Of a stretch of 64,000 nucleotides of DNA, positions 7,501-10,500 are shown piece after piece. The notes below the pieces were generated by a model. It was not told the DNA's origin, made no database searches, and saw only the letters and a list, made by a program, of their open reading frames with translations. The position numbers were made by a program, and so were the translations under genes. Origin of the DNA: Actinokineospora baliensis (GTDB lineage: Bacteria; Actinomycetota; Actinomycetes; Mycobacteriales; Pseudonocardiaceae); contig NZ_JAFBCK010000001.1 in the NCBI RefSeq assembly GCF_016907695.1, positions 124,001 through 188,000 of the forward strand, in the 5' to 3' direction. Within the stretch, counting starts at the first letter, position 1. Every line of letters begins with the position of its first letter.

Positions 7501-10500
7501 CGTGGGCGTTGGTGCCGCCGATGCCGAAGGCCGAGACGGCGGCTCGGCGGTGCGGGCCGGACCAGGGCTGGGTGGCAGTGAGGACGGCGAGGGAGCCGGA
7601 CCAGTCGATGTGGGGGCTGGGGTCGTCGGCGTGGAGGGTGGGGGGCAACGATCCGTGGCGCATCGCTTCGACGAGCTTGATGATGCCCGCGACCCCGGCT
7701 GCCGCCTGGGTGTGGCCGATGTTCGACTTGACCGACCCCAACCACAACGGCCGGTCGCGGTCCTGGCCGTAGGTGGCGAGGAGGGCTTGCGCTTCGATCG
7801 GGTCACCCAGTGCCGTGCCGGTCCCGTGCGCCTCGACAGCGTCCACATCGGACGGATTGAGGCCCGCATCGGCCAGAGCCGCCCGGATGACGCGTTGCTG
7901 CGCGGGGCCGTTGGGCGCGGTGAGGCCGTTCGAGGCCCCGTCCTGGTTGACGGCTGTGCCGCGGACCACGGCGAGCACCGGCCGGTTCGCGGCGACGGCG
8001 TCCTCGTACCGCATGAGCAGCAGCACACCCGCGCCCTCGCCCCAGCCGGTCCCGTCTGCTGCCGCGGCGAACGCCTTGCACCGACCGTCGGCGGCGAGTC
8101 CGTTCTGGTGCCCGAACTCCACGAACGCGGTCGGCGTCGACATGATCGTCACACCGCTCGCCAGCGCCATGTCGCACTCGCGCCCCCGAAGCGCCCGCAC
8201 GGCCAGGTGCAACGCGACCAAACTGGACGAACACGCCGTGTCGACCGTCAGCGCGGGACCTTCGAGCCCGAACGCGTACGCGATCCGTCCGGAAAGGACA
8301 GCCGCCGCACTCCCGATCGCCAGGTGCCCCTCAAGCCCTTCCCCCGCCCCGGCAACCAGCGGCGCGTAATCCTGCCCGTTGGTCCCCGCGAACACCCCGA
8401 CGCCAGCCCCCTTGAGCCCCGTCGGGTCCATCCCCGCCCGCTGGAAGACCTCCCAGGTGATCTCCAGCAACACACGCTGCTGCGGATCCATCGCCAACGC
8501 CTCCCGCGGCGAGATCCCGAACAACCCCGCGTCAAACCCCGCCACGTCGTCGAGGAACCCGCCAACCCTGGCGAACTCCGGCGCCCCCGCGAGATCCCAC
8601 CCCCGGTCCCCCGGGAATCCCCCCACCGCATCCCCGCCCCGACTGACCAACCCCCACAATTCCTCCGGCGACCGCACCCCACCCGGGAACCGACACGCCA
8701 TCCCCACCACAGCAATCGCCCCCCCAAGCGATCCGCCACCCCCCGCACCCTCTACCCCGCGCCCACCCCCACGCGACGTCAGCCCGCCACCCTCTTCGCC
8801 ACGCCCACTCCCGCGCGACAGCCCCGCCCCCTCCGCCCCGCTCCCGCGCGACGGCAACCTCACACCCTCTGCCCCACGCCCATCCCCGCGCGACGGACCC
8901 ATACCCCCGGCGCCACGCTCGCCCCCGCGCGACGACAGACCCGCACCCTCCGCCTCGCACTCACCCTCACGCGACGGCTCCCCACCCTCTACCCCGCGCC
9001 CACTCCCGCGCGACGACAACCCCACACCTTCTGCCCCACGCCCATCCGCACGCGACGACAGACCCCACTCGTCCGCACCCGCCCTCGCACGCGGCGTCAG
9101 CTCCCCACCCTCCGCATCGCGCCCGCCCCCGCGCGACAGACCCACATCTCCTGCGCCACGCTCGCCCCCGCGCGACGGCAACCCCACACCCGCCGCCCCG
9201 CGCTCATCATCACGCGACGACAACCCGACATCCCCTGCGCCACGTCCACCCCCGCGCGACGACAGTCCCACACCCTCGGCTTCGCGCCCACCTCCGCGCG
9301 ACGGCAACTCCCGACCTTCTGCCCCATGCTCACCCCCGCGGGACGGCAAACCCCGCCCATCCGCGCCTGCGTTTGCGCCCGCACTCGCACGCGACGCGCG
9401 CCCCCCACCCTCAGCCTCGCGCCCATCCCCGCGCGACGGACCCATACCCCCTGCGCCACGCTCACCGATGCGCGACGACAGACCCATACTCTCCGCCTCA
9501 CGCTCACCCTCACGCGACGGCCTCGCATCCTCTACCCCGCGCCCACCTCCGGGCGACGACAGACCCGCACCCTCCGCCTCGCGCCCACTCCCGCGCGACA
9601 GACCCGCACCCTCCGCCCCGTGCTCACCCTCGCGCGACGGCAGACCCCACCCATCCGCGCCTGCGCCCGCGCTCGCACGCGACGTCAGCCCGCCACCCTC
9701 CGCCTCGCGCTCACCTCCGCGCGACGGCCCCGCACCCTCTGCTTCGCGCTCGCCGACCGACGGCAACCCAGCGCCCTCAACCTCGCGCCCGCCCGCGCGC
9801 GAAGGCAGACCCCACCCTCCCTGGGGGGCCACCCCGCTCCAGTCTAGTGGGGTGGGGGGCTGGGGGGAGGGGGTGGCGGAAGGCTGTGGATGGGGGGCGG
9901 GGTTGTGGACAAACGGGGGGACGAGCAGGGTTCGCAGGTAGGCGGCGACAGCGGCGGGGGTGGGGTAGTCGAAGACCACACTGGCGGGTAGTGGCTTGTT
10001 GATCGCGGCCGACAGGGCGTTGCGGAGTTCCAGGCCGGTGAGGGAGTCGAAGCCGAGGTCGCGGAAGGCGCGGTCCGCCGGGACGGGGGTGGGGCGGCCG
10101 AGGATGGCGGTGGCGTGGGTGCGGACCAGGGTCTCCAGGTCCACCGGTGCGGCGTCGGGGGTGGCGGGGGTTTGGAAGGCGTCTAGGAGGGCGCCTGGGC
10201 GGGCGGGGAAGCGGGACCACGCGATGTCCGCGACGACGGTGTGGGGGGTGTTGGAGTCTAGGGCGCGGGCGAGGGCGGTCAGGGCGGCCGCGGGGGGCAT
10301 CGGGGTGAGGCCGGTGCGGCGCAGGCGGTCGGCGACGGGGCCTGCGGCCATGCCTGCGTCGGCCCAGGGGCCCCAGGCGACGGCGGTGGCGGGGCGGCCT
10401 TGCGCGCGGCGGCGGGCGGCCAGGGCGTCCAGGGCGGCGTTGGCGGCGGCATAGTTGGCCTGGCCGGGGTTGCCGATGACGCCCGCCAGGGAGGAGAACA

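What the first reader, a model, noticed from the sequence alone, without database searches (positions are those of the whole stretch)
8745..9820. About 26 tandem 13-residue repeats form a giant inter-module linker in PKS-I
An ordinary PKS linker is a few tens of residues. Here about 358 residues of G-L-[SP]-S-R-G-G-x-R-x-A-E-G units separate the module 2 ACP from the module 3 KS, in frame, with no stops and normal domains on both sides. The nucleotide core TCGCGCGGG recurs every 39-42 nt, so the array looks expandable by slippage or recombination, like a coding minisatellite. It could be a passive expansion or a flexible tether that spaces modules or recruits a partner. I know of no PKS described with such a linker.
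Basis: partly seen in the sequence, partly recalled or inferred. Interest (0 to 1): 0.8.

Follow-up and report, generated by a model that had tools for sequence, protein, structure and literature searches.

The report
Dispersed repeat captured inside antibiotic enzyme
A giant repetitive stretch inside a bacterial polyketide-making enzyme appears to come from a short DNA element, normally scattered between genes, that landed in frame inside the gene and whose tail then multiplied; copies of the same element also sit inside other unrelated enzymes of related bacteria.

Summary
The array is real: 26 in-frame units (359 aa, window 8744-9820, minus strand) within a 397-aa ACP-KS linker of a 5618-aa PKS. 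The linker starts with ~114 nt (9801-9914) of a dispersed, mostly intergenic element: two DnaA-box-like sites, TAGACTGGAG, a GC hairpin, a G-rich tail. A model from 24 copies of other species, none in a PKS, ranks this linker and one other linker of the cluster as the two best of 70 matches in the genome (E ~5e-19). The element is in 49 of 100 sampled family genomes and 0 of 72 of other families, though one Rhodococcus contig holds a copy. The repeat unit resembles the element's tail, and tails expand beside non-coding copies too (3' end 14/121, 5' end 2/121). Further in-frame copies lie in another PKS junction, NRPS domains, ABC proteins and MurD. The core peptide has pN/pS 1.01 against 0.36-0.39 in flanking domains: most likely a tolerated, disordered tether with only the frame kept. 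It works like Rickettsia palindromic elements, but is a different family with an expandable tail; mobility is unproven.

The parts
4562..21418 (-). type I PKS gene, 5618 aa (5606 aa as predicted in the protein database): loading module plus three extension modules
9915..10140 (-). approximate end of the ACP of module 2 (GFDSL motif at about 10040-10054)
8720..9910 (-). whole ACP-KS linker, 397 aa
9801..9914 (-). captured copy of the dispersed element (70.9 bits, E 4.8e-19; G000:C1:133801-133914)
   Evidence: model R1 was built without this genome
9904..9912 (-). DnaA-box-like site 1, TTGTCCACA
9884..9892 (-). DnaA-box-like site 2, CATCCACAG
9823..9846 (-). element core TAGACTGGAGCGGGGTGGCCCCCC, read here as (L)DWSGVAP
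   Evidence: 0 mismatches
8744..9820 (-). tandem array, 26 units, resembling the element's 3' tail (overlaps the element's last 20 nt)
7628..8716 (-). KS of module 3, starts right after the linker

Best explanation
A copy of a dispersed, mostly intergenic ~114-nt element of Pseudonocardiaceae was captured in frame in the ACP-KS linker (shown by homology and by relatives with and without it at the matching junction). Its G-rich 3' tail, a kind of tail that also expands beside non-coding copies, then grew in this lineage into 26 units, probably by slippage and unequal recombination (expansion shown by comparison with A. diospyrosa, tail origin supported, mechanism inferred). Only frame-keeping expansions survive. 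The product is a long disordered tether that the synthase tolerates; the core peptide is under no detectable selection (function inferred). The element works like a protein-coding selfish or passive repeat; how it moves is unknown.
For: Model R1 came from 24 copies of four other species, none from a PKS (one, L057, later proved to lie antisense inside an NRPS gene). In the window's genome its two best hits are the two expanded PKS linkers (71.0 and 70.9 bits). Pattern TAGACTGGAGCGGGGNGGCCCCCC, up to 2 mismatches: 29 hits in 6 of 16 genus genomes, four of them PKS linkers; reversed control 0. E<=1e-6: 49 of 100 family genomes, 0 of 72 genomes of 15 other families (stricter filters). Junction matched by best hit: element present in G015 and G005, absent in G011, G008, G003. 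Tails share more with the array than their shuffles: exact stretches of 14 nt or more in 6 of 120 copies against a mean of 0.6 (most 4) in 50 shuffles, 5' flanks 0 of 120. Tandem repeats abut the 3' end in 14 of 121 copies, the 5' end in 2 of 121 (p=0.003; 13 and 2 of 120 without this array, p=0.006); shuffled flanks 0-4. Top periods divisible by 3 in 4 of 4 PKS tail arrays, 4 of 13 non-coding ones (one-sided p=0.029; picked by somewhat different rules). pN/pS: core 1.01 (0.62-1.97), ACP 0.39 (0.20-0.69), KS 0.36 (0.19-0.61), five copies. Parallel captures.
Against: No insertion boundary, target duplication or mobility was shown. The single longest tail match (19 nt) is not decisive by itself, since shuffled tails reached 18 nt at this G-rich composition. 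Between array units pN is below pS (0.28 vs 0.38 for 13-mers, 0.20 vs 0.38 for 14-mers), which could mean weak constraint on the repeated peptide. The intervals of core and ACP ratios overlap slightly. Two junctions of one cluster keep the element in several species, which could hint at usefulness. Four of 57 copies examined in this genome are coding and all four are in megasynthases; gene length may explain that, but it was not tested. Four of 8 element-bearing PKS linkers have no tail array. One Rhodococcus contig carries a copy, so the element is not strictly confined to the family.
Confidence: 0.8

Rival explanations
1. The linker is an adaptive part of the synthase: the element-derived peptide and the arrays space modules or bind a partner and are kept by selection.
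For: Element kept at two junctions in G000, G015 and G005 and at one in G011; the four coding copies of this genome are all in megasynthases; array units have pN below pS.
Against: Core peptide pN/pS 1.01 against 0.36-0.39 in flanks; J1 linkers with the element range from 59 to 397 aa with unrelated or no repeats; matching junctions in G008 and G003 lack it.
Confidence: 0.13
2. The linker grew de novo from low-complexity linker DNA and resembles the intergenic element only by shared G+C-rich composition.
For: Both are G-rich on one strand; short G-rich hits to the array exist in 15 of 61 genomes searched, itself included; shuffled tails can match the array over up to 18 nt.
Against: Full-length 114-nt match at E 4.8e-19, best of the genome together with the second linker, with both box motifs and the TAGACTGG core; reversed pattern 0 hits; 0 of 72 genomes of other families match. 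For the array alone, as opposed to the cassette, composition remains a weaker but possible account.
Confidence: 0.03
3. Assembly artefact or broken gene.
For: Long repeats are a known source of misassembly.
Against: Single-contig 7.68-Mb assembly; units 72% alike, not identical copies; 0 stops in frame; intact domains on both sides; the PKS of A. diospyrosa carries the same element at the matching place.
Confidence: 0.04

Closest known systems
Rickettsia palindromic elements (RPE) and similar protein-coding repeats (review PMC2229807, passages read; Wolbachia known only from a title in its reference list)
   Same: Small (RPE 105-146 bp), many copies, in intergenic DNA and also in frame inside unrelated protein genes including conserved ones.
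   Different: Not palindromic from end to end, other sequence, other phylum, carries two DnaA-box-like sites, and its 3' tail expands into minisatellites; hosts found here include PKS, NRPS, MurD and ABC proteins.
Bacterial MITEs such as ERIC/RU-1 and Correia/NEMIS (same review, passages)
   Same: Non-autonomous small repeats, some with open frames fused in frame to genes.
   Different: No terminal inverted repeat in the consensus fold; target duplication not tested.
Coding minisatellites in general (recalled)
   Same: Tandem in-frame units, higher-order periods.
   Different: Here the likely seed is a recognisable dispersed element, and such tails expand outside genes as well.
Ordinary ACP-KS linkers of modular PKS
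   Same: Same place between ACP and KS.
   Different: Far longer: GxDSL to KS is 446 aa here against 58-65 aa at 18 other junctions of the cluster.

Membership tests
Rickettsia palindromic element type (protein-coding dispersed repeat) | 100-150-nt element in many dispersed copies | tested here: met
   about 114 nt, 70 matches at E<=0.01 in the genome, 57 with E<=5.4e-6 examined
Rickettsia palindromic element type (protein-coding dispersed repeat) | copies both between genes and in frame inside unrelated genes | tested here: met
Rickettsia palindromic element type (protein-coding dispersed repeat) | palindrome with terminal inverted repeats | tested here: not met
   consensus fold pairs only the 3' part and a short internal stem; ends do not pair
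Rickettsia palindromic element type (protein-coding dispersed repeat) | insert shown to be translated and tolerated in the protein | not testable with these tools
   needs proteomics
MITE | terminal inverted repeats | tested here: not met
MITE | target-site duplication | not tested
   no close pair of sites with and without the element was compared as DNA
Known Rfam RNA family | match to a curated covariance model | tested here: not met
   no match in window 8500-10200 up to E 1; in eight loci one chance-level hit, MIR2670 at E 0.099 and 25.8 bits against a gathering score of 117
DnaA box | TT(G/A)TCCACA | tested here: inconclusive
   consensus given in PMC4210621 (passage); box 2 TCCACA nearly invariant in 25 aligned copies. 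In the window site 1 fits exactly, site 2 is CATCCACAG. Binding not tested

The most novel reading that the evidence does not exclude
The element family is a standing generator of new protein linkers: it enters permissive loops and inter-domain linkers in several reading frames and both orientations, then its expandable tail gives each host protein a hypervariable, length-tunable disordered segment, so that megasynthase architecture in this family is partly shaped by a mobile repeat, and selection sometimes keeps the result.
Probability: 0.15. Interest if true: 0.92.

Novelty: new variant of a known kind. Interest (0 to 1): 0.74.

Why it matters
It gives a giant PKS linker a concrete, testable origin, adds an actinobacterial family to the protein-coding repeats reviewed from Rickettsia and enterobacteria (PMC2229807), and shows such a repeat inside assembly-line synthases and in MurD, a cell-wall enzyme. 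Natural linkers of 59 to 397 aa at one matching junction are a ready experiment on how much spacing between PKS modules matters, a question for synthase engineering.

Tried and rejected
Protein search with the array: only the protein itself among the 1033 candidates scored (those sharing most words, of comparable length). DNA search of 61 genomes with the array: only short hits outside this genome, but hits in G015 and G013 led to the element. Rfam: no gathering-level match. Idea that the element is a promoter upstream of genes: not favoured, because flanks with coding signal show it lying 3' of co-oriented genes (left flank + 51, - 13; right flank + 9, - 22 of 121 copies). Tail repeats by composition alone: rejected by shuffles. 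A smaller first test of 22 copies of this genome gave no clear 3' excess of repeats within 200 nt (3 against 2); the excess shows for repeats that abut the element in 121 copies. Four of eight copies flagged as coding in this genome were dropped on reading (L171, L175, L193 at 634706, L196 at 2818056). L130 was flagged in two frames; the MurD frame is taken as the real one. Gene conversion between the two linkers is plausible (J1-J2 identity within G015 94%, within G005 90%, against 80% between their counterparts), but in G000 the pair (86%) is no closer than its counterparts in G015 (89 and 84%), so it stays open. Papers: searches were seen as listings only; passages were read of PMC2229807 and PMC4210621.

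Limits: the codon model was trained on PKS genes of this genome only; copies examined are those fetched, not a random sample; counts per genome are capped by the number scored (150, 36, 45). Best-explanation confidence was lowered from 0.82 to 0.80, and the two first rivals raised by 0.01 each, after the tail control.

Full report
What is there. The window lies at G000:C1:124001-188000 of a single-contig 7.68-Mb genome. ORF 4562-21418 (minus) is a type I PKS with a loading module (KSQ by a recalled motif, GQSSSL) and three extension modules. Between the third ACP and the fourth KS is a 397-aa linker, of which 359 aa are 26 tandem units. The frame is open (0 stops) whereas the other two frames of the strand have 7 and 14 stops; units are 72% alike on average; TRF sees higher-order periods of 81 and 162. 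Composition is 59% G, S, A and P with nearly balanced charges (49 K+R, 57 D+E). AlphaFold2 gives pLDDT of about 35-49 and no secondary structure through the linker; with ten sequences and a poorly modelled KS end this is weak evidence.

A second linker. In the same cluster (G000:C1:33-181 kb) a motif search found 20 in-protein ACP-KS junctions, one fewer than the KS count implies: 18 are 58-65 aa from GxDSL to KS, J1 (this one) 446, and J2 (KS at 87184) 154. J1 and J2 begin with the same cassette of about 38 aa ([13 protein letters not shown]...WSGxAPQGGWG) although their repeats differ.

The cassette is a dispersed element. Its DNA recurs outside PKS genes. A scan of named species genomes found 53 stretches, in Actinokineospora, Kibdelosporangium, Actinosynnema sp. 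ALI-1.44, Streptoalloteichus, Amycolatopsis and one Rhodococcus rhodnii contig (near relatives of the window may be left out there). Alignment shows the layout: two sites of the DnaA-box type 18-20 nt apart, a C-rich stretch, cgaTAGACTGGAGC, a GC hairpin, and a G-rich tail; some copies have only the second site.

Independent test. I built a sequence model from 24 copies of G006, G009, G012 and G013, none from a PKS or from this genome (one, L057, was later seen to lie antisense in an NRPS gene). In this genome it finds 70 matches at E<=0.01, and the two best are J2 (71.0 bits, 4.3e-19) and J1 (70.9 bits, 4.8e-19). All 16 genus genomes have matches at E<=0.01. At E<=1e-6 it is found in 49 of 100 family genomes and 26 of 46 genera, and in a sample of the order in 8 of 9 genomes of this family and 0 of 72 of 15 other families (with filters that lose weak matches).

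Matching junctions in relatives (by best hit and position in the cluster). J1 in G015 (92% alike over the KS part) has a 59-aa linker: the cassette and a short tail, no array. G005 has the cassette in a 188-aa non-repeated linker. G011, G008 and G003 have short linkers without it. J2 carries it in G000, G015, G005 and G011 (109, 60, 183, 156 aa) but not in G008 or G003. G003 has it instead at a third junction, whose counterpart by position in G000 lacks it. So presence, length and repeats vary while the domains on both sides stay normal.

The array and the element's tail. The unit consensus GGTCTGTCGTCGCGCGGGGG... is like the element's 3' end. An array unit and the tail of a non-coding G013 copy share an exact 19-mer. 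As a control, the 3' tails of 120 copies share exact stretches of 14 nt or more with the array in 6 cases (four of them PKS linkers of relatives, two non-coding G013 copies), dinucleotide-shuffled tails in 0.6 on average and at most 4, 5' flanks in none; but shuffles reached 18 nt, so one long match alone proves little. Tail expansion also happens outside genes: among 121 distinct copies with flanks, tandem repeats abut the 3' end in 14 and the 5' end in 2 (p=0.003; 13 and 2 of 120 without J1, p=0.006), against 0-4 in 20 shuffles. Examples are L186 (18 bp x 6.8), L148 (16 bp x 7.5) and L149 (19 bp x 6.7). Of eight element-bearing PKS linkers four have a tail array, all with a best period divisible by 3 (42, 66, 63, 6 nt); of 13 non-coding 3' arrays four have one (one-sided p=0.029; the two sets were picked by somewhat different rules). 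Reading: expansion is general, and the frame filters it.

Selection. Over the five PKS copies that could be parsed (of seven), pN/pS is 1.01 (bootstrap 0.62-1.97) in the 34-codon core, 0.39 (0.20-0.69) in the ACP segment and 0.36 (0.19-0.61) in the KS segment. The peptide is therefore most likely tolerated rather than needed. Against this, units within the array have pN below pS (0.28/0.38 and 0.20/0.38).

Other captures. Of 57 copies examined in this genome, 8 were flagged as spanning an open frame and 4 stood up on reading: J1, J2 and two in paralogous NRPS domains just before the HHxxxDG motif, read in another frame. In other genomes, in antisense: an NRPS condensation domain (78 residues where 8hlk_A has 19), an ABC ATPase (77 residues where 9j4r_B has 2), the linker of a fused ABC exporter (read only, not compared), and MurD (about 115 residues longer than 3lk7 and 8dp2 at that point). 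MurD of Kibdelosporangium phytohabitans has the same insert: the stretch EQPPPDPGGVPAPVYR is identical, while the tail side differs in length and sequence and looks repetitive in only one of the two, the same picture as in J1.

Where other copies sit. With a codon model trained on this PKS cluster, left flanks with coding signal are 51 co-oriented to 13 opposed, right flanks 9 to 22 (121 copies): this fits a place behind genes. What the element does there, and how it moves, is unknown.

Comparison. It works like Rickettsia palindromic elements, reported in frame in 19 protein genes according to the review PMC2229807 (passages), but it fails their palindrome criterion and has its own sequence. 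I found no description of this element or of repeat-filled PKS linkers with the terms; the library lacks most subscription journals. Verdict: a new variant of a known kind; element origin well supported, tail origin of the array and passive role likely, mobility unproven.

Noticed in passing
G000:C1:3481011-3481121 and 3485561-3485671 (L212): Two copies of the element in frame inside paralogous NRPS domains, read in a different frame from the PKS copies.
   Followed up: partly
L130:1-1596 (Actinosynnema sp. ALI-1.44) and P0015 (Kibdelosporangium phytohabitans): MurD carries the element antisense with a variable Ala/Pro/Thr-rich side.
   Followed up: partly
L145:28-2412 (G014), L083:3074-7006 (Actinosynnema sp. 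ALI-1.44), L057 (G012): Antisense in-frame copies in an ABC ATPase, a fused ABC exporter linker and an NRPS condensation domain.
   Followed up: partly
   Followed up: no
G000:C1 7145964/7146319/7146694; 634150-634818; 637479-638145 and others: Copies of the element often lie in local clusters 200-400 nt apart, as if duplicated together with flanking DNA.
   Followed up: no
L097 (Rhodococcus rhodnii contig JOAA01000029.1): One copy of the element in a record outside Pseudonocardiaceae, near the end of the contig; transfer, contamination or wider range.
   Followed up: no
window 59478-59569: Perfect 45-bp tandem duplication, not inside an ORF of 250 aa or more, followed by a GCTCGATGGGG...GGGGCCCCTACG stretch like the second repeat of G013.
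   Followed up: no
upstream of Kibdelosporangium copies (e.g. L098, L120): GTGCGAACGG...-type palindromes resembling a LexA/SOS box (recalled motif) upstream of the element core.
   Followed up: no
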